This document shows, in pieces, positions 1 through 12,950 of a stretch of 23,756 bases of DNA. A program made the position numbers and the translations under genes. Source of the stretch: a virus; the IMG/VR virus record IMGVR_UViG_3300021962_000656, positions 1 through 23,756 of that record; one strand, given 5' to 3'. The notes beneath the pieces are model-generated. The model was not told the origin of the DNA and did not search any database. It saw only the letters and a list, made by a program, of their open reading frames with translations. Position 1 is the first letter of the stretch. Each line of letters starts with the position of its first letter.

Positions 1-179
1 TAAAATATGGTTTTATAGCGCAAGAAGTAAAAGAAGTGATGCCTGAATTAGCTAGAAAATTAGATGAAAATTCAGACTACTTAGGACTTGAAACTGAGGG
101 TATTTATGTTACACTAGTTAACGCAATTAAAGAGCAGCAGGCCCAAATCAACGAATTAAAATCACAATTAAATAAATAA
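1..179 (+). CDS. Tail fibre/spike C-terminus with S74 intramolecular chaperone (5' truncated)
   Basis: Only the last ~58 codons are in the window, read in the frame beginning at base 3 and ending with TAA at 177-179. The translation has the hallmark end of a peptidase S74 / endosialidase-type intramolecular chaperone: GFIAQEVKEVMPEL, then a YLGLETEGIYVTLVNAIKEQQ segment and a short terminal coiled coil ending in ELKSQLNK. In this family the chaperone domain trimerises a fibre or spike protein and usually cleaves itself off. The catalytic Ser-Lys region would lie upstream, outside the window, so self-cleavage cannot be judged. The next gene begins 3 bases after the stop, so they are probably co-transcribed. 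This is the main evidence that the left edge is phage tail structure. Confidence 0.85.
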   Translation, partial: KYGFIAQEVKEVMPELARKLDENSDYLGLETEGIYVTLVNAIKEQQAQINELKSQLNK

Positions 180-182
180 AAA

Positions 183-572
183 ATGGCAACAACAGTATTT
201 GAATGGGTTATCAGCCAATTGAATTGTGCTGTAGAATCTGAAGGTTTACCGGATGTAATCAATATGATACATTGGAGGTATAACGCAACCCAAGAGCATG
301 ATGGAAAGGTTTATTTTGCTGACACTTATGGTGCATCAGGCGTAGCACAACCAAATCCACAAAACTTCATTCCTTACGCAGATGTGACAGAAGCAGAAGT
401 TATCGGTTGGTTAGAGCAGATATTGCCGGTTGGTGCTATGCAATTATCCTTAGAGAACAATATCGCTCTTCAAATCAACCCTGTGGAGGTGACATTGCCG
501 CTCCCATGGCTCCCAACCACAACTACGACTACAAAAGCTCCTGATACAACCACGACAACCGAGGCTCCATAA
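183..572 (+). CDS. Probable tail-associated protein with Thr-rich C-terminal tail
   Basis: A 129-residue protein that starts 3 bases after the tail-fibre stop, so probably part of the same virion-protein operon. Residues 1-105 look globular and soluble, with no signal peptide or membrane segment; I do not recognise the fold. Residues 110-129 are low complexity: six Thr (112-117), K-A-P-D, five Thr (122-126), E-A-P. The 11 Thr codons use all four ACN forms in mixed order, so the run is not a slipped DNA microsatellite and looks selected as protein. Thr/Pro/Ala-rich tails are seen on structural proteins of other phages and could be flexible spacers or O-glycan acceptors. The glycosyltransferase genes next door make the second idea attractive, but that is inference. 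Confidence 0.75.
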   Translation: MATTVFEWVISQLNCAVESEGLPDVINMIHWRYNATQEHDGKVYFADTYGASGVAQPNPQNFIPYADVTEAEVIGWLEQILPVGAMQLSLENNIALQINPVEVTLPLPWLPTTTTTTKAPDTTTTTEAP

Positions 573-621: not shown

Positions 622-963
622 ATGAAATCAATTGAACTAGTAGTAGCTAAAGAAAACATTGGTGGTAGAGATACCTTTTTAACCACTTATGATTTATTAA
701 AATCAGCCATCAATAATCCAACACAAGGAGGATTTAATGTTGATGAAATGATCAAAAGACTTCGTTTATTAGGTGAAGTTGAAAAGCACAAAGACTTATT
801 TGACATCAAGCCAGAAGATTTTAAAGATGAGCTTCTTGAAAGAAAAGCCACATTAGAATTAGAAGATGCTGATTTTACCAAGTTAAAAGAACTCTTCAAA
901 GAAATGAAATGGGGAGTAGTATCAAAAACGATTGTTGATTTAAGCAATCAATTAGATAAGTAG
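622..963 (+). CDS. Hypothetical phage protein, 113 aa
   Basis: Soluble, charged, mostly helical protein with no signal peptide, membrane segment or motif I can name. It has its own promoter box (600-607) with a very short leader, and its stop lies 27 bases before the hairpin terminator at 990-1016. The helical pattern (DEMIKRLRLLGEVEKHKDLF; DADFTKLKELFKEMKWGVVS) suggests a small helical bundle. Its place after tail genes would suit an assembly or regulatory role, but nothing in the sequence fixes a function. Confidence 0.75.
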   Translation: MKSIELVVAKENIGGRDTFLTTYDLLKSAINNPTQGGFNVDEMIKRLRLLGEVEKHKDLFDIKPEDFKDELLERKATLELEDADFTKLKELFKEMKWGVVSKTIVDLSNQLDK

Positions 964-987: not shown

Positions 988-3054
988 TTAAGCAGGCTGC
1001 GAACCTGCTTTTTTTATTTCATCTATTACCATATCAGGAGTAATACTATTCTGACATTCAAATTGCCTATCTGTTCCCTTATGTTTAGGGCAAAATGCCC
1101 AATCTCCAGCATCAAATCTTATATCTGGCTTATTCCAACAACCATGACAGACATTTGTATTGTATGGTCTAATACATTCAAATTCATGGTTAATGTCAGT
1201 AAATCCTGCAATCATGATAACTTTCTTGCCTAATCCAAAAGCAAGCCATGAAATTCCTGATGATAATCCTATGAATTTTTCAGAATGATGTATTACAGAC
1301 ATTGTATTTTCTATGCTCGTATCTTCTAATTGGTAGCAGTTGTTAAATGGATTGCGTTCTTTTGATGTATTTATGACATTGTAGCCACTTTCTACCAAAA
1401 AGTCTATAACCTCCTGCCAATGACTTCTGAGCCAAAATTTAAGCCCCGAAGTGCTATTTGTAGCTATTGTAACATATTTGCCGTATTTATTGTTACCTAT
1501 GTCATATTTTAATCTTGGTCTAACTTCCTCAAAATCCAATCCCAATATATTACTAGCTGCTTTTTGTAGCGGAATAGTATTGCATAATACAGGCTCTCTG
1601 TTTGAATCATAAAACCATCCAATCTTGTACATAGCATAACAACTTACAGAGCTGCCCGGTTCTACTAATTCCAATTCCGGATAGTCTAGTATTTTATTCC
1701 AAAAAGTAGAAACAATAACTTTGCACTGATGCTTTTTTCTAAATTCTTCACAATATCCAATCCAAGCCAATGTGTCCCCTAAACTCTTGCTTTCAAAAGC
1801 TATAAAGACTATTTTGCCATGTAAATCCAGTACATTTTCATAGATAAGCTGGTTGTCCTGATATACATAAGTTTTCCATTTGGTATAGTATTGTCTATTG
1901 AGCCTTACCCAGCTATTGCTTTTGATTACGCTTTGGTATTGGCATACATCATTCTCATCATAGAATCTAACATCAAAGTCGCTATCACTTTCTACTTTTA
2001 TTTCAAGGAAAGGGTTGTTGATGAAATTTTGTAATATGCGGACGGATTGTTTTCTAATAGGAAACTTCATTATTGCTTCGTACATCTTAACATGATCTAA
2101 TGCAAAATTTATTGAATTATTGTTATTTGGTATATTGTAATCTCTTGTAATAGTATATAAATCGCTATCTAATGGCTTTATGTATTTGTCTAAGGTGTCT
2201 TTGTAAGCTGGTAGGTTATTGGCTATAATCGGTAATCCAACCTCAATGGCATGTCGTATAGACAATGGGGAACATTCATTGGTAGAAGGGAATACGAATA
2301 TGTCAGATGCCTGCAAAAGAATATCAATATCGCTTCGCTCTCCAAGTGCTTTAAAATTTGTTGGCAAATCTTTAATCAAATCCTCCCAATAAAACTGAAA
2401 ATTTCCGGCCATGTTACCAGCTACTACAAAATCAATATCCGGAAACTTCCGCGCAATAGCAATTGTTTCTTTTTGATTCTTTTGTGGTGTCCAAAGTCCA
2501 ATATGTAATGCAGTTTTCCTATCTAAGGAAAATCCAACCTTCTTCTTTGCTTCCAACTTCATGTCAGAAGTCACCTCTTTTTCTTCTATTGGGTACTGAA
2601 TTGTGAAATATTTAGAGTCCATGTTTGCGTACACATCTTCATGAAAAGGAGTACAAAAAGCGTACAAATCTGGGTGGAATACCTTATCTGCATCAGGATT
2701 GAAAATGTTATCATGTGGGGTTTCTACAATTCTGTAAGTCCTATTATTTGAATATAAAGCTTTTGCAAGCTCTCTTGGTAGTCTTTCAGCCACATCTTCA
2801 ATATGGACTATATCTGGCTTTATCTGGTTAATAATATCCATTACGCGCATCTTATTCTCACCAGCTTCATAAAACCTATCACCAAGTAAATCTACTATCT
2901 GATTCCTTTGAACCACATACGCAGATCCATGAAAATTAAGCTCAATGCAATACACTTCTGTTTCTGAGTAAGCAAGTAAACTTTGTATTCTTTTAAGCGC
3001 AAACATTGGTGCGCCCCCCGTACTCAAATGGTACTCAATCAGTAATACTTTCAT
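988..3054 (-). CDS. GT4 - BAHT fusion: glycosyltransferase fused to TibC-like O-heptosyltransferase
   Basis: 688 residues with two enzyme domains. Residues 1 to about 330 are a GT-B/GT4 glycosyltransferase: GG loop at 13-14, HIGLWTPQKNQ at 184-194, VVAGN at 210-214, and a degenerate EX7E motif where Glu260 is kept but the second Glu position is His268. Residues about 345-688 match the bacterial autotransporter strand-loop-strand O-heptosyltransferase family (GT9-like; TibC, Aah): SLGDTLAWIGYCEEFRKKH (424-442), STFWN (449-453), GLSSGISWLAFGLGKKV (596-612), then Cys636, Cys639, Cys655, Cys667. The C-x2-C-x15-C-x11-C spacing equals the iron-binding cysteine spacing I recall for TibC (358/361/377/389). 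Known members are cytoplasmic and add heptose to Ser of autotransporter adhesins. It is the last gene of its operon and overlaps the upstream endonuclease by 20 bases. Substrate and sugar here are unknown. Confidence 0.88.
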   Translation of the reverse strand: MKVLLIEYHLSTGGAPMFALKRIQSLLAYSETEVYCIELNFHGSAYVVQRNQIVDLLGDRFYEAGENKMRVMDIINQIKPDIVHIEDVAERLPRELAKALYSNNRTYRIVETPHDNIFNPDADKVFHPDLYAFCTPFHEDVYANMDSKYFTIQYPIEEKEVTSDMKLEAKKKVGFSLDRKTALHIGLWTPQKNQKETIAIARKFPDIDFVVAGNMAGNFQFYWEDLIKDLPTNFKALGERSDIDILLQASDIFVFPSTNECSPLSIRHAIEVGLPIIANNLPAYKDTLDKYIKPLDSDLYTITRDYNIPNNNNSINFALDHVKMYEAIMKFPIRKQSVRILQNFINNPFLEIKVESDSDFDVRFYDENDVCQYQSVIKSNSWVRLNRQYYTKWKTYVYQDNQLIYENVLDLHGKIVFIAFESKSLGDTLAWIGYCEEFRKKHQCKVIVSTFWNKILDYPELELVEPGSSVSCYAMYKIGWFYDSNREPVLCNTIPLQKAASNILGLDFEEVRPRLKYDIGNNKYGKYVTIATNSTSGLKFWLRSHWQEVIDFLVESGYNVINTSKERNPFNNCYQLEDTSIENTMSVIHHSEKFIGLSSGISWLAFGLGKKVIMIAGFTDINHEFECIRPYNTNVCHGCWNKPDIRFDAGDWAFCPKHKGTDRQFECQNSITPDMVIDEIKKAGSQPA
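990..1016 (+). terminator. Intrinsic terminator between convergent operons
   Basis: AAGCAGG (990-996), loop CTGCGAA, CCTGCTT (1004-1010), then a T run to 1016. It is a clean 7-bp hairpin with U tract for rightward transcription from the tail operon. The hairpin lies inside the last codons of the leftward 688-residue transferase (its KKAGSQPA end and stop), so the element is shared with coding sequence. On the other strand the hairpin is followed by TTAATTT, a weaker U tract, so it may act in both directions. Confidence 0.8.
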
Positions 3055-3859
3055 GTTTTTTTGAATTCAAGTTTTTAATTAATTGTTCTCTCATTCTCTC
3101 TATAAATTCAGGGCTTCTTTTTTTGCCTTTCTTTGCTAAAGAAATTTTATTTTTTGCTTCTTCACTAAGATTTTTTCCAAGCATTGGTGGATTTATTTTC
3201 ATTCTTTCTCTTTGTTTTTCATTCATTTCCTCAGTTCTTTTTTTGCCTTTATTTCCTAATGATATTTTTTTCTTTGCCTCTTCTGAATGGTTTCTACCCC
3301 AATTTGGACTTAATTCCCCCCTTTTGCCCCACATTACATTTTTCTCTTTTTCAAATAATCCAATTACTCCTTTATTCCAAGATGGTTTACCAAAACAAGG
3401 ATGATTTTCTCCTTTTTTTGCAGATGATTTCATTTTTTGTTTAGTTTCTTCTGAATGTTTTTTACCCCAATTTGGACTCAATTCTTTAGATTTACCAAAC
3501 ATAGCATTTTTAACACCCTTGCTTCTTTCGGAAAACTTCTTTTTTGTTTCTTCGGTATGTATAACTCCAAATGCTCCATCGCCACCATCAGTTAAATTAC
3601 ATAAATTACCCAAATTATTATTTCTTCTGCCGTAGAAAGAAATTAAGTATTTTTCAATAGCGCATGCCTCTTCCCATAATATATCCTTATGTGTTATTTC
3701 AACTATTATGCCGTATTTATCTTTTATTTTGTTCCAGAATTGGTTTCTTCTACTATTTATTTGGTATGCTCTTTTATCAGATTTACCAATTCCAACATAA
3801 AATACGTTTAAAAATGGATCTTCAATATCCTTTCTTCTGTGTATATAAACTATTGCCAT
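3035..3859 (-). CDS. GIY-YIG homing endonuclease with NUMOD3 repeats
   Basis: 274 residues from the ATG at 3859; an in-frame upstream ATG at 3904 would lie inside the structured leader and before the domain, so it is rejected. The N-terminus is the nuclease: VYIHRRKD as the GIY strand, FYVGIGK as YIG, Arg-rich RRNQFW helix, and the Glu in WEEACAIEKYLISFYGR. The rest is a string of NUMOD3-type DNA-binding repeats (HTEETKKKFSERSKG, HSEETKQKMKSSAKKG, HSEEAKKKISLGNKGKK, LSEEAKNKISLAKKGKK), separated by FGK/WGK motifs. This layout is typical of free-standing phage homing endonucleases. It sits between two glycan genes without breaking either, and its last 20 bases overlap the start of the GT4-BAHT gene. 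Confidence 0.9.
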   Translation of the reverse strand: MAIVYIHRRKDIEDPFLNVFYVGIGKSDKRAYQINSRRNQFWNKIKDKYGIIVEITHKDILWEEACAIEKYLISFYGRRNNNLGNLCNLTDGGDGAFGVIHTEETKKKFSERSKGVKNAMFGKSKELSPNWGKKHSEETKQKMKSSAKKGENHPCFGKPSWNKGVIGLFEKEKNVMWGKRGELSPNWGRNHSEEAKKKISLGNKGKKRTEEMNEKQRERMKINPPMLGKNLSEEAKNKISLAKKGKKRSPEFIERMREQLIKNLNSKKHESITD

Positions 3860-3870
3860 AAAACAAAAAA

Positions 3871-3973
3871 TGCCCAAAATAGAAGGCTTATTCCCTTTAT
3901 ACAATAATGTATAGGGACATCTAAATTGGGCAAAAAGTTTGTAATATTTTTAATCATATAAAGGGAAATAAGC
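3871..3973 (-). promoter_or_regulatory. Structured, possibly switching leader before the homing endonuclease
   Basis: Between the methyltransferase-glycosyltransferase stop and the endonuclease ATG. Arms 3957-3973 (GCTTATTTCCCTTTATA on the minus strand) and 3886-3901 (TATAAAGGGAATAAGC) pair over 16 bp with one bulge. A second helix joins TGCCCAA and TTGGGCA (3926-3932 with 3871-3877). A third hairpin, TATACA-ATAA-TGTATA plus CCC/GGG, occupies 3893-3916. The first and third helices share bases, so they exclude each other. The second helix ends 11 bases before the ATG and is followed by ATTTTTTGTTTT on the transcript, like an intrinsic terminator. Structured leaders repressing homing-endonuclease expression are known from T4; the role here is inferred. 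Confidence 0.55.
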
Positions 3974-3974
3974 A

Positions 3975-5327
3975 CTATAAAGATAGTAAATATTCAATAA
4001 ATTCTTTTATTTTTTCAATATTTTTTTCTCCATGCCAAAAGAAATGGTTGCTTTTTAATGGAACCTTTTTCCATTGTCCAATAAAATATGGCTTATCTTT
4101 GTACACTAAATCTTTATATAAACCATTTATATAACAATACGGCAATCCCATCGTTGCTTTATAGTCATAAATTAATGTTTGAAGCACGCTCTCTTCATTG
4201 TAGCTCGCATACCATGAATTATTTTTTAGGATTGACGGGTGGTTGCATCTGTAATACCAAAGATCTAAAAATTCTATGCAGTTTTGTCCTGCAACAAAAT
4301 ACCCTGTTTGTCTATATCCGGTAAATTGTCTTTGCTTTTGGTCAGATTTAAACAATTCACATACAGGTGCCTCTAAAGTAGTATGTAAGTTATCATAATC
4401 AGTTGCCCCTCCACGATCATTAACTATTAAAAAATCATAAATTCCTTCTACAAAATAAGGATAATTAGAATTTTCAGGGAAATAATCAAATATTTGATTG
4501 ACTGATGGATTGGCTATGCTATCTGTGTCAACATAAGCAACATTTTCTGCAAATTTTTCTAATGCATGCTTGACTATCTTAGGCCTTTCAATTAAAAGTT
4601 TGTAAATATGTTTATTTCCTCTATCAATGTAGTCGGCCCTTTGTTTCAGGTGCTTTACATCACAATCCCATCTTATTGTTTCCGTATCTTCAATCTTTTT
4701 ATCAGAGTTAAGCATGTAAACTAGGATTGGTATCTCACTGAACTTACGGATTGATTCAATGCATACCTGTACCAAGTCGGCATAAGACTCATCAGCGTAC
4801 AATAAATAGGCTCTTTTATGCTTTTGTTTCTTATTTACATAGTAGCCATAGTATTGGTTGGCATAGAGTAGTTGAAGTTCTGGGTATCTGGTTTCCATGA
4901 CTGCCGGACTTAAATCAGGCTGCAAATGGGTTTCATGGACATTGCCTTCATGCTCTCCCTGTTCCATAAGATATGGCACTGCCACCAAGCACTGCTTACC
5001 ACTGGTTACTATCTTTTTGATTATGCTTTGGGCATCTTCCACAGATAAATGTTCCAGCACATCACCCATGATAATGAACTCGTAATAGTCAAAATGGAAG
5101 CCAACTACACTTTGTATAAAGACGTTGTTGTACTTCTTATCTAATTGGTAATTAACTACATAGGGTTCGTATATCTCTACGCAATCCATGTAGTAACCAT
5201 AGTTTTTAAGCAAATCAGAATAGGTGCCAATACCAGCTCCTACATCTAATATCTTTTTATTTACGGCTACATTATCTACAATGTAGTCCCTGACTTCTTG
5301 CTTGAAGAATTGAAAGCTAGTTGGCAT
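3975..5327 (-). CDS. SAM methyltransferase - glycosyltransferase fusion
   Basis: 450 residues. Residues 1 to about 165 are a class I SAM-dependent methyltransferase: ILDVGAGIG (26-34) is motif I, an acidic VEIYEP follows at 50-55, and IIMGDVLEHLSVEDA (85-99) is the post-I region. Residues about 168-450 resemble a GT-A glycosyltransferase: RAYLLYADESYADLV, then VAYVDTDS with Asp267-Thr-Asp269 as the metal-binding DxD, and a late HFFWHGEKN. Fusions of this kind occur in phage and capsular polysaccharide clusters; it may methylate and elongate the same glycan. First gene of the leftward glycan operon, with a TAnnTTTG box at 5346-5353 and a leader of about 12 nt. Substrates cannot be read from sequence. 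Confidence 0.82.
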   Translation of the reverse strand: MPTSFQFFKQEVRDYIVDNVAVNKKILDVGAGIGTYSDLLKNYGYYMDCVEIYEPYVVNYQLDKKYNNVFIQSVVGFHFDYYEFIIMGDVLEHLSVEDAQSIIKKIVTSGKQCLVAVPYLMEQGEHEGNVHETHLQPDLSPAVMETRYPELQLLYANQYYGYYVNKKQKHKRAYLLYADESYADLVQVCIESIRKFSEIPILVYMLNSDKKIEDTETIRWDCDVKHLKQRADYIDRGNKHIYKLLIERPKIVKHALEKFAENVAYVDTDSIANPSVNQIFDYFPENSNYPYFVEGIYDFLIVNDRGGATDYDNLHTTLEAPVCELFKSDQKQRQFTGYRQTGYFVAGQNCIEFLDLWYYRCNHPSILKNNSWYASYNEESVLQTLIYDYKATMGLPYCYINGLYKDLVYKDKPYFIGQWKKVPLKSNHFFWHGEKNIEKIKEFIEYLLSL

Positions 5328-5374: not shown

Positions 5375-5382
5375 TATCTTTG
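5354..5382 (+). promoter_or_regulatory. Rightward TAnnTTTG promoter, divergent
   Basis: TATCTTTG at 5375-5382 fits the -7 box. Its upstream block ATTAATTTAATTAAAT (within 5354-5370) is the same DNA used by the leftward promoter, and only 21 bp separate the two -7 boxes. The predicted leader to the ATG at 5398 is about 9 nt. The shared block would let one factor control both glycan operons. Confidence 0.6.
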
Positions 5383-5397
5383 CCTAAAATAATTATT

Positions 5398-5775
5398 ATG
5401 AAAATAGAAGTAAGCATTGGCGAAATAGCCGACAAGTACACCATCTTAACCATCAAATCATTTGAAATTTTAGACGAACAAAAGCAACTTAACATTAAAA
5501 AAGAATGGAAGTACATCAATAGTGTAATAAAGGAAAGCTTCCCTGAATTAGCCGCAGATCCATTAACGCATAGGCTTCTGGATATAAACAGGCAGTTGTG
5601 GGTGGTGGAAGATTCGCTCCGAGATTGCGAAAATGACAGGGAGTTTGATAAGTTGTTTGTCTTTTTGGCAAGGCAAGTTTACAGGCTAAATGACCAGAGA
5701 GCAGCCATTAAGAAGCAAATTAACATAAAATACAAGTCCGACATTGTAGAGGAGAAGTCGTATAACGCTTATTAA
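5398..5775 (+). CDS. DUF6165-like protein
   Basis: 125 residues from the ATG at 5398. A TTG 18 bases upstream is in frame but lies in the -7 promoter box, so it is rejected. The sequence has the pattern I associate with the DUF6165 family: EVSIGEIADKYTILTIKS at the N-terminus, an LLDINRQLWVVEDSLR helix, LARQVYRLNDQRAAIKKQIN, and EEKSYNAY at the end. The family is helical, of unknown biochemistry, and often found beside glycosyltransferase genes, which fits here: it is divergent from the methyltransferase-glycosyltransferase gene and shares its promoter block. No signal peptide or membrane segment. A role in regulating or scaffolding glycan assembly is only a guess from context. Confidence 0.75.
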   Translation: MKIEVSIGEIADKYTILTIKSFEILDEQKQLNIKKEWKYINSVIKESFPELAADPLTHRLLDINRQLWVVEDSLRDCENDREFDKLFVFLARQVYRLNDQRAAIKKQINIKYKSDIVEEKSYNAY

Positions 5776-10608: not shown

Positions 10609-10637
10609 TTTTAATTTAATTAACTCGTTTAACTTTG
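10609..10637 (+). promoter_or_regulatory. TAnnTTTG promoter of the second glycan cluster
   Basis: TAACTTTG at 10630-10637 fits the -7 box, and TTTTAATTTAATTAAC upstream matches the AT block of the promoters at 581 and 5354. The predicted leader to the ATG at 10650 is about 6 nt. Confidence 0.6.
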
Positions 10638-10649
10638 GAAAAAAAATAC

Positions 10650-11579
10650 ATGAAGTTAAGATTCATCTGTGCTCAACCAACTTCCCTTTATTATGCGTGG
10701 CAAGTAGAAGTTATGATAAATAACTTTATTGAAATGGGTATCAACCCTAACATGATAGATATTGTTTGCTGGAAGGTGAATGATGTTATTCCGGACGAGT
10801 GGACTAAACTAGCTGCTAATTATCCAGCGAGGTTCTTTTTTTATTCTGATACCAGAGAAACTAGGCACTACATATCTTCAATACGTCCTAACATATTAAA
10901 GCAGCACTTTGAACAAAATCAATACATAGAGCAAGAAGCAGTACTTTATCATGATTGCGACATAGCTTTTACCAAAAAGATAAACTGGGAGCAGTTCCTT
11001 GAAGATGATAAGTGGTACGGATCTGACTGCCGCTGGTACATAGCCCATAGCTACATATTAGGCAAAGGCCAAGATGTAATGGATAAGATGTGTGAGATAG
11101 TAGACATACCAGAATCACTAGTAAAAGATAATGAGCTTAACTCAATCGGTGCGCAATATTTAATGAAGGGTATCAATGCGCAGTTTTGGGCAGACGTGGA
11201 AAAAGATTGCGAAAGATTGTTCCATGAAGTAACTCAACTCAATAATCAAAAGAAACAAGCAGATCCAACGCATCATGAATTACAGATATGGTGTGCAGAT
11301 ATGTTTGCTTTGCTGTGGAATGGTTGGAAGTTAGGAGCACAAACTATATGCCATCCTGATTTAGAGTTTTCATGGGGCACAAGCACCGAGGCAGACTGGG
11401 ATAGATTAAATATATTTCATAATGCCGGTGTTGTTACATCTGCCGGTGGCTTATTTTACAAAGCAGAATGGATGAACCAGTTGCCCTATAGTGCAACTTT
11501 GAATATAAACGAAGGAACCGCCAGCAAGAAGTACTGGGATATTATACAAGACACAGCTAAAAAATCAGTTTTATTATGA
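10650..11579 (+). CDS. Glycosyltransferase (GT-A-like, DxD)
   Basis: 309 residues from the ATG at 10650. A TTG 15 bases upstream is in frame but lies in the -7 box and is rejected. YHDCDIAF has Asp102-Cys-Asp104 as the metal-binding DxD after a Rossmann-like half (LRFICAQPTSLYYAWQVEVMINNF). A later region (HHELQIWCADMFALLWNGW; FSWGTSTEADW; HNAG) resembles sugar-acceptor sites of phage-encoded transferases. No membrane segment. First gene of a four- or five-gene cluster joined by ATGA overlaps and short gaps, with an FkbM-type methyltransferase next. Donor and acceptor are unknown. Confidence 0.75.
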   Translation: MKLRFICAQPTSLYYAWQVEVMINNFIEMGINPNMIDIVCWKVNDVIPDEWTKLAANYPARFFFYSDTRETRHYISSIRPNILKQHFEQNQYIEQEAVLYHDCDIAFTKKINWEQFLEDDKWYGSDCRWYIAHSYILGKGQDVMDKMCEIVDIPESLVKDNELNSIGAQYLMKGINAQFWADVEKDCERLFHEVTQLNNQKKQADPTHHELQIWCADMFALLWNGWKLGAQTICHPDLEFSWGTSTEADWDRLNIFHNAGVVTSAGGLFYKAEWMNQLPYSATLNINEGTASKKYWDIIQDTAKKSVLL

Positions 11580-12088
11580 CAACAAAAGTAGTAGAGTCGG
11601 AAAATCCATTAGAGCATTGGAACGACATTCAAAACGTAGAAGGTAAAGTAGTGTTAGATTTAGGTTGTGGGTGGTTGTTCCAGCCATTTGAATCAACGCC
11701 TCAATACTTCATAAATAGAGGAGCTAAAAAAATAATAGGTGTAGATGCATCATGCGGAGAAATTGAGAAGCTAAATGCAACTTTCCCTGAGCATACTTTT
11801 GTTTGTAAAACTATTTCTAATTTTGATGATTTACTGGGATTGATTACAGAGTATAAGCCAGAGTTAATCAAGATGGATATAGAAGGCCATGAGCAACACA
11901 TGAAGGATATTACTGCTGAGCAATTTGAATCAGTAGAGGAGATAGCAGTTGAGTACCATAATCCTACCTGCAAAGAAATACTAGAAAAAAAGCTAACTGA
12001 ATTAGGTTTTGAGATATTTGCAACTAATCAATTTGGTTGGTTCTGTACAGATATTGAGCAAATGGGCATAATGCACGCAAAAAGATAA
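11576..12088 (+). CDS. FkbM-type SAM methyltransferase
   Basis: 170 residues, a compact class I methyltransferase. VVLDLGCGW (25-33) is SAM motif I, IIGVDAS (53-59) gives the acidic residue at the end of strand 2, and LIKMDIEGHE (97-106) is the FkbM signature. FkbM enzymes O-methylate sugars in antibiotics and polysaccharides. Its start overlaps the stop of the preceding transferase (ATGA), and the following sugar-transferase gene starts after one base, so methylation of a phage-made glycan is the simplest reading. Confidence 0.85.
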   Translation: MTTKVVESENPLEHWNDIQNVEGKVVLDLGCGWLFQPFESTPQYFINRGAKKIIGVDASCGEIEKLNATFPEHTFVCKTISNFDDLLGLITEYKPELIKMDIEGHEQHMKDITAEQFESVEEIAVEYHNPTCKEILEKKLTELGFEIFATNQFGWFCTDIEQMGIMHAKR

Positions 12089-12089
12089 T

Positions 12090-12950
12090 ATGATCATAAA
12101 TAAAGCAACATACGGAGGTCAAGATTGTACTCAATTAATTAGAGATAAAGTAGTATCAGACAAACTTGTAGTAAGGTCTAGTAATGATATTATAGGAGAT
12201 ACAGCAGTTGGTCATGTAAAGTACTTGGAGTTAGATATAGACGGCAATTTATTTAGTGTTAGGGAAGGCAGTATATTTGTATACCCAAAGTCTAAAAGCA
12301 GGAAATTGGGCATATTCTATTCCAATAACAACAATAAAAAGATATGGCCCTCAATATACAAATCATTAGATACAATTAAGAAAGCCAGTAATGGAGTAGC
12401 AGACATTGTAACTTGTATGTGGGAGCCTATGCCGGAAAATCCTTTCTACCAAGTTAGAAGCTGGTACCAATCCCAATCGCATCTTAACCAGTTGCTACAA
12501 ATTATGCAGTGCCTTTACGCAGCCAAAGAAACCGGAGATTATGATTACGTTTCCTTTTTAGAGCATGATGTAATGTACCCGGAAGGTTACTTTGATTTCC
12601 CTGATTTTAACAGAGGCAGCGTGCTTACCAATATGAATTATGGAGGCGTTTGTATCAATGGCTGGCAGGAAAGAGGTCAAGATGATGAGCCGTTCCACCA
12701 AATGACTATGAGATTTGATGATGCCATTGAGCATTGTTTGGCCATTTTACCCAATGCCTTGCGTACTAATAGCGGTATGATTGAAACGCAAACCATGAAT
12801 AGAACTCAATGGAACTGCCAAAATCAAGCTATCCATATCAATCATGGAGTACATTTTACCAGCCATAACTCAATATATCGCAAAGATAATTTATCTTTAA
12901 CTCATGATTACTGGGGTAACCATTCCGATTATACCAATTTATTTATATGA
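12090..12950 (+). CDS. Glycosyltransferase-like protein with N-terminal DUF3395-like module
   Basis: 286 residues. The first ~65 (INKATYGGQDCTQLIRDKV, VRSSNDIIGDTAVGHVKYLELDI) look like the small beta module of DUF3395-type sequences with A-x-YG and ND-x-x-GD motifs, which is found attached to varied enzymes. The rest fits a GT-A-like transferase: KLGIFYSN, a helix HLNQLLQIMQCLYAAKETG, then FLEHDVMYPEGYF with Glu158-His-Asp160 where DxD is expected. The DxD variant is a caution. It lies 1 base after the FkbM gene and overlaps the next gene as ATGA. The module may bind a glycan or protein partner. Confidence 0.68.
   Translation: MIINKATYGGQDCTQLIRDKVVSDKLVVRSSNDIIGDTAVGHVKYLELDIDGNLFSVREGSIFVYPKSKSRKLGIFYSNNNNKKIWPSIYKSLDTIKKASNGVADIVTCMWEPMPENPFYQVRSWYQSQSHLNQLLQIMQCLYAAKETGDYDYVSFLEHDVMYPEGYFDFPDFNRGSVLTNMNYGGVCINGWQERGQDDEPFHQMTMRFDDAIEHCLAILPNALRTNSGMIETQTMNRTQWNCQNQAIHINHGVHFTSHNSIYRKDNLSLTHDYWGNHSDYTNLFI

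What the first reader, a model, noticed from the sequence alone, without database searches (positions are those of the whole stretch)
988..3054. Phage-encoded GT4-BAHT fusion with an intact TibC-type iron-finger
Seen: a 688-residue protein with a GT4-like N-half and a full C-half that follows bacterial autotransporter heptosyltransferases, including Cys636/639/655/667 at C-x2-C-x15-C-x11-C. Known: TibC-family enzymes form iron-containing cytoplasmic dodecamers that O-heptosylate autotransporter passengers. Inference: a phage uses this machinery, linked to a second transferase, to build and attach a glycan in the cytoplasm. A BAHT in a lytic-module context is, to my knowledge, little described.
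Basis: partly seen in the sequence, partly recalled or inferred. Interest (0 to 1): 0.82.

Follow-up and report, generated by a model that had tools for sequence, protein, structure and literature searches.

The report
Phage enzyme for sugar-coating collagen-like fibres
A phage gene that reads as a bacterial adhesin-glycosylating enzyme fused to a second sugar transferase belongs to a widespread set of phage and bacterial genes that sit next to genes for collagen-like Gly-Ser/Thr repeat proteins, which suggests, untested, that the enzyme puts sugars on the phage's own collagen-like fibres.

Summary
ORF 988-3054 (minus strand, 688 aa) is a GT4 domain fused to a TibC-like domain: NCBIfam TIGR04414 245 bits against a cut-off of 200, and the C-half model matches TibC at Z 35, rmsd 2.3 over 347 residues. 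The four cysteines have TibC's exact spacing and are present in every phage homologue that covers them. Two TibC features fail: the adenine-contacting Arg286 is Thr here (T in 88 of 108 phage homologues), and the dodecamer-forming beta-hairpin thumb is about 10 residues shorter. A TibC-type dodecamer using ADP-heptose is therefore not supported as stated.

The acceptor was the open question. BAHT-like genes lie beside collagen-like Gly-[Ser/Thr]-[Ser/Thr] arrays: 52 of 60 distinct phage loci with good flanks, 0 of 74 control loci, and 18 of 26 bacterial or archaeal loci. In 23 near-complete phages of one lineage, BAHT and collagen co-occur perfectly (20 both, 3 neither). The window shows only the S74-type C-terminus of the neighbouring fibre. 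In the closest relative that gene carries 8 Pfam Collagen stretches.

Best reading: a phage-encoded multi-domain enzyme (methyltransferase, GT-A, GT4, BAHT) that O-glycosylates its own collagen-like fibre. Acceptor, sugar and iron are inferred, not shown.

The parts
988..3054 (-). GT4-BAHT fusion protein, 688 aa (the finding)
2059..3054 (-). GT4 half, residues 1-332; first Glu of EX7E kept (E260), second replaced by His268 in this protein and three relatives
991..2046 (-). BAHT-like half, residues 337-688; D427, T535, K539, W603 match TibC D110, T226, K230, W305; T584 replaces R286
1054..1149 (-). four-Cys finger, C636-C639-C655-C667
3035..3904 (-). GIY-YIG/NUMOD3 homing endonuclease gene sitting in the junction between the two halves of what is one polypeptide in other relatives
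3975..5327 (-). SAM methyltransferase (residues 1-165) plus GT-A-fold glycosyltransferase (169-440, invariant DxD D267/D269); fused in frame to GT4-BAHT in many relatives (1136-1165 aa proteins)
3..179 (+). C-terminal end of a tail-fibre protein (S74 intramolecular-chaperone type), open at the left edge of the window; in L003 the same gene is a 1267-aa collagen-like fibre
183..572 (+). DUF7936 protein with a TTTTTTKAPDTTTTTEAP tail, between fibre and GT genes; possible alternative acceptor
622..963 (+). conserved 113-aa neighbour of unknown function
5380..5775 (+). DUF6165 protein; DUF6165 is fused to the C-terminus of the GT4-GT25-BAHT-FkbM protein of L044
10635..11579 (+). conserved phrog_4417 protein with a DxD-like motif (YHDCDIAF), present near BAHT in 70 viral loci; probable further transferase (inference)
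11576..12950 (+). weak methyltransferase match (11576-12088) and a GT-A-like ORF (12090-12950, by inspection only); possible glycan tailoring genes

Best explanation
The protein is the terminal part of a phage-encoded glycosylation machine. Its BAHT-like half starts O-glycans on serines of the collagen-like Gly-[Ser/Thr]-Ser repeats of the phage's own tail fibre, in the host cytoplasm during virion assembly. The linked GT4 and the upstream GT-A domain extend the glycan, and the methyltransferase domain caps it. The Cys4 finger (probably Fe or Zn) holds the fold and a dimer. The TibC dodecamer is probably not formed, because the thumb is missing. Shown: homology, conserved catalytic and metal residues, modular fusion, gene linkage to collagen-like fibres. 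Inferred: the acceptor, the order of steps, the sugar (a hexose or heptose), the metal, and that the fibre of this very phage carries the repeats.
For: BAHT family profile and TibC fold; D110, K230 and the four Cys present in all covered phage homologues, T226 as T/S, W305 in 106 of 107. Linkage: Gly-[ST]-[ST] arrays within 5 kb in 52/60 distinct phage BAHT loci with both flanks at least 4 kb, against 0/74 control loci, p 5e-29. Within one phage lineage picked by an unrelated structural gene, 23 near-complete records are 20 BAHT+/collagen+, 3 -/-, none discordant, p 6e-4. Cellular BAHT loci: 18/26 with arrays, in methanotrophs often in the adjacent gene. In 20 whole genomes, 8 of 9 exact array places lie within about 10 kb of a BAHT gene; each of these genomes has one full-length BAHT. 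Partner identity: L003 fibre (relative 97% identical in the enzyme) has 8 Pfam Collagen stretches and Peptidase_S74. Y position of the repeat is Ser in 72-76%, and TibC glycosylates Ser, not Thr (PMC4358343). MT-GT-A is fused to GT4-BAHT in many relatives.
Against: No array lies in the window: only 58 codons of the fibre are inside it, and the one other contig of this phage (L002) shows 821 C-terminal fibre residues without an array; its N-terminal part is missing. Linkage is not enzymology. Some BAHT loci have no array nearby. Thr-rich tails are also enriched near phage BAHTs (67/138 against 0/74), though in 0/26 cellular loci. The array-free TibC/rumen clade shows that the fold serves other acceptors. 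Control loci were chosen by lysozyme and need not cover the tail module.
Confidence: 0.62

Rival explanations
1. A TibC-like enzyme in the strict sense: an iron-containing dodecamer that moves heptose from ADP-heptose onto SLS/autotransporter-like virion proteins.
For: TIGR04414 hit, finger and catalytic base conserved.
Against: Thumb that builds the ring is lost and R286 is Thr; no autotransporter or SLS protein seen nearby; BAHT-like phage proteins are mostly fused to large GT modules.
Confidence: 0.1
2. A host-surface modifier: the GT set alters LPS or O-antigen to block superinfection, as proposed in the literature for other phage GTs (e.g. PMC7029224).
For: Phage GTs often do this; BAHT is related to GT9 LPS heptosyltransferases.
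Against: C-half is far closer to protein-modifying TibC than to LPS GT9 models; phage lineage lacks BAHT exactly when the collagen fibre is absent; standalone cellular BAHTs pair with secreted collagen-like proteins.
Confidence: 0.12
3. The acceptors are the Thr-rich tails (TTTTTTKAPDTTTTTEAP) of small virion-like proteins such as the DUF7936 protein next door.
For: Tail present in the window at 183-572 and T6 runs in 67/138 viral BAHT loci against 0/74 controls.
Against: No T6 runs in 26 cellular BAHT loci, while 18 have Gly-Ser/Thr arrays; TibC modifies Ser, not Thr (PMC4358343); many DUF7936 homologues lack the tail.
Confidence: 0.12
4. Collagen fibres and BAHT genes are merely co-inherited in one host-recognition island, without an enzyme-substrate relation.
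For: Phage tail-fibre regions are hypervariable and often collect GT genes (PMC7029224).
Against: Same pairing in methanotrophs, other gammaproteobacteria, Schekmanbacteria and archaeal MAGs, and genome-wide specificity in cells.
Confidence: 0.12

Closest known systems
TibC / AAH, bacterial autotransporter heptosyltransferases (NCBIfam TIGR04414; PDB 4rap, 4rb4; PMC4358343)
   Same: Fold of the whole C-half including the N-terminal beta-barrel region, catalytic Asp, Thr/Lys phosphate site, Trp, four-Cys finger with identical spacing.
   Different: Fused behind a GT4 (and in relatives an MT-GT-A); thumb shortened; adenine-contact Arg replaced by Thr; S598 where TibC has Pro300 (as in AAH, S294); linked to collagen-like fibre genes, not autotransporters; encoded by a phage.
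Chlorovirus PBCV-1 A064R and A111/114R (PMC7826918)
   Same: Virus-encoded multi-domain GT proteins that build glycans on virion proteins; A064R ends with a methyltransferase that caps the glycan.
   Different: Unrelated domains, N-linked capsid glycans, eukaryotic algal host.
Mycobacteriophage virion glycosylation (Freeman et al. 2023, as cited in PMC12619734)
   Same: Phage GTs decorating virion proteins.
   Different: C-termini of capsid and tail tube subunits; no BAHT finger domain or collagen-like acceptor known to me.
GT4 glycosyltransferases (Anabaena HepE 4xsr, BshA 6n1x)
   Same: GT-B fold and GT4 motifs of the N-half.
   Different: 14-16% identity; second Glu of EX7E is His268 here.

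Membership tests
BAHT (TibC/AAH) | Scores above curated TIGR04414 cut-off | tested here: met
   245.4 bits against 200
BAHT (TibC/AAH) | TibC fold, barrel plus two-lobe catalytic domain | tested here: met
   Model residues 337-688 to 4rb4 21-393, Z 35.0, rmsd 2.3, 347 aligned
BAHT (TibC/AAH) | Four-Cys finger C-x2-C-x15-C-x11-C | tested here: met
   Cys 636/639/655/667; Cys in all 106 phage homologues covering it
BAHT (TibC/AAH) | Catalytic Asp110, Thr226, Lys230, Trp305 | tested here: met
   D427, T535, K539, W603
BAHT (TibC/AAH) | Arg286 contacting adenine, needed for activity | tested here: not met
   T584; T in 88/108 phage homologues, R in 10/25 cellular ones
   Region 28 residues against 38 in TibC, tip deleted
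BAHT (TibC/AAH) | Gene partner is an autotransporter | tested here: not met
   Neighbours are a phage fibre, DUF7936, MT-GT; collagen-like fibre in relatives
BAHT (TibC/AAH) | Bound iron, dodecamer, heptosylation of Ser | not testable with these tools
   needs purified protein
GT4 (N-half) | Pfam GT4 above cut-off and GT4 fold | tested here: met
   PF00534 54.8 bits against 26.4; Z 28
GT4 (N-half) | EX7E motif | tested here: not met
   E260 kept, second Glu is His268 in P0001 and 3 relatives; Glu in 27/31, so in the family it is met
Collagen-like fibre partner | Pfam Collagen in the adjacent fibre gene | tested here: inconclusive
   Met in relatives (L003 E 4e-37); window holds only the 58-aa C-terminus and L002 821 aa without an array

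The most novel reading that the evidence does not exclude
Collagen-like Gly-[Ser/Thr]-Ser repeat proteins are the main acceptor class of the wider BAHT family, in phages, methanotrophs and other bacteria and some archaea. Autotransporter modification by TibC/AAH would then be one side branch that gained the thumb and dodecamer. This would be a prokaryotic and viral pathway for collagen O-glycosylation.
Probability: 0.42. Interest if true: 0.85.

Novelty: new variant of a known kind. Interest (0 to 1): 0.72.

Why it matters
Phage glycosyltransferases are usually filed as LPS or DNA modifiers. If this reading is right, hundreds of environmental phages carry a self-contained machine that sugar-coats their receptor-binding fibres, and the acceptor and enzyme can be read from gene order. 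It would give bacterial and viral collagen a dedicated O-glycosylation enzyme, widen the acceptor range of a family known only from bacterial autotransporter adhesins, and make the role of fibre glycans in adsorption, stability or host-range masking testable.

Tried and rejected
Group I intron at the MT-GT / GT4-BAHT junction: no Rfam hit in the window; relatives show fused, ATGA-overlapping or HEG-interrupted forms, so a split gene with an inserted homing endonuclease fits better. Near DNA match of the window in the phage collection: none. Published link of BAHT to phages or collagen: none found in the open library; absence there is weak evidence. Reciprocal scan: 8 of 120 fragments chosen by the array pattern carry BAHT, but fragments average 9 kb, so this is only a lower bound. 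The label 'array nearby' is only weakly clustered on the BAHT tree; five of its rows came from the array scan and are biased for it. Identity of the 314-aa conserved neighbour by PDB sequence search: nothing. Genome contigs was scanned once with phage-derived patterns, so the cellular set leans towards phage-like BAHTs.

Full report
Observation. The 688-aa ORF is real, intact and on the minus strand at 988-3054. Its cysteines 636, 639, 655 and 667 have the spacing of TibC Cys339/342/358/370. The C-half passes the curated cut-off of TIGR04414 by 45 bits. It matches TibC in the PDB by sequence at E 9e-47 and in the AlphaFold2 model (pLDDT 87.9) at Z 35, rmsd 2.3, over 347 residues. The N-half is a GT4 by Pfam and by fold.

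How far it is TibC. Mapping the TibC paper's functional residues onto the alignment, the catalytic base D110, T226, K230 and W305 are kept as D427, T535, K539 and W603, and the four cysteines and F368 are kept. Across 108 distinct phage BAHT domains D and K are invariant, and the Cys are present wherever the region is covered. Arg286, which contacts adenine and is required in TibC, is Thr here and in 88 of 108. The TibC paper calls both features conserved in the BAHT family. I therefore call this a BAHT-like domain and do not file it as a canonical BAHT. Iron, dodecamer and ADP-heptose remain untested.

Architecture. Upstream on the same strand lies a methyltransferase plus GT-A protein (3975-5327; GT-A fold Z about 16-17 to GT6 and GT8 enzymes). 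In many relatives that protein and GT4-BAHT are one polypeptide of 1136-1165 aa. In closer relatives they are split with a 4-base overlap, and in the window a GIY-YIG/NUMOD3 homing endonuclease occupies the junction. Other phages use different module sets, e.g. GT4, GT25, BAHT, FkbM methyltransferase and DUF6165 in one 1603-aa protein of L044.

The partner. While reading neighbours I found that BAHT genes sit beside ORFs with Gly-[Ser/Thr]-[Ser/Thr] arrays. The fibre gene next to the enzyme in L003 (enzyme 97% identical) has 8 Pfam Collagen stretches and an S74 chaperone. The window's left edge is the end of the homologous fibre. Using a fixed array definition, 52 of 60 distinct phage BAHT loci with at least 4 kb on both sides have an array within 5 kb, against 0 of 74 lysozyme-selected control loci.

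Controls for shared ancestry. I selected a phage lineage by an unrelated structural gene and searched whole records for BAHT and Pfam Collagen. Among the 23 records of 56 kb or more, 20 have both, 3 have neither and none is discordant (p 6e-4). One of the three, G059, has only a weak partial match at E 1e-7, counted as absent. In cells, 18 of 26 BAHT loci have arrays, and in methanotrophs the array protein is often directly adjacent. In 20 whole genomes (79 Mb), 8 of 9 exact array places lie within about 10 kb of a BAHT gene; each of these genomes has one full-length BAHT. The isolate Microcystis phage Mel-JY01 and the 735-kb phage LR756501 also carry both near each other.

Tree. TibC groups with three rumen BAHTs that have the long thumb and no arrays (support 100/99). 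Array-linked BAHTs are spread over most of the rest of the tree, in viruses and several phyla. Sampling is biased towards phage-like sequences, so which acceptor is ancestral cannot be decided.

Mechanism. The repeats carry Ser at Y in 72-76% of triplets, and TibC modifies Ser and not Thr (PMC4358343). I infer that the BAHT half starts the glycan on these serines, GT4 and GT-A extend it, and the methyltransferase caps it, as in the chlorovirus protein A064R (PMC7826918). The steps after homology and linkage are inference.

Limits. The array is not in the window. The only other contig of this phage shows 821 C-terminal fibre residues without an array and lacks the rest. In L003 the arrays lie in residues 33-556 of 1267. 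The closest portal relatives are flavobacterial phages, so the host is probably a Bacteroidota, but this is a weak lead. The published view of phage GTs in fibre regions is LPS modification, and that rival is not excluded.

Noticed in passing
window 3035-3904 (-): A GIY-YIG/NUMOD3 homing endonuclease gene sits exactly in the junction of the split MT-GT / GT4-BAHT gene; other relatives have different small ORFs or endonucleases at the same junction or just behind BAHT (L003, L005, L043, L032).
   Followed up: partly
window 183-572 (+): DUF7936 protein ends in a Thr-rich tail TTTTTTKAPDTTTTTEAP; T6 runs occur in 67 of 138 viral BAHT loci, in none of 74 controls and in none of 26 cellular BAHT loci.
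   Followed up: partly
L003 20763-21257 (-): Ferritin/rubrerythrin-like protein (Pfam Ferritin E 1e-14) encoded in the structural region of the closest relative.
   Followed up: no
window 2251-2277 (-), residues 260-268: Second Glu of the GT4 EX7E motif is His268 in this protein and three close relatives but Glu in 27 of 31, hinting at changed or lost GT4 activity in this subclade.
   Followed up: partly
window 5380-5775 (+): DUF6165 gene beside the glycosyltransferases; DUF6165 is fused to a BAHT-containing protein in L044, suggesting a role in the same pathway.
   Followed up: partly
window 10635-11579 (+): phrog_4417 protein of unknown function with a DxD-like motif, found near BAHT in 70 viral loci.
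   Followed up: partly
L066, L068, L071, L073, L074, L079, L081, L082: Two-gene pairs in methanotrophs and other bacteria: a collagen-like Gly-Thr-Ser repeat protein (a signal-peptide-like start seen by eye in L071) beside a standalone BAHT.
   Followed up: partly
L002 10020-12488 (-): Visible 821 residues of the fibre of this same phage differ in the middle from L003 and contain no Gly-Ser/Thr array.
   Followed up: partly
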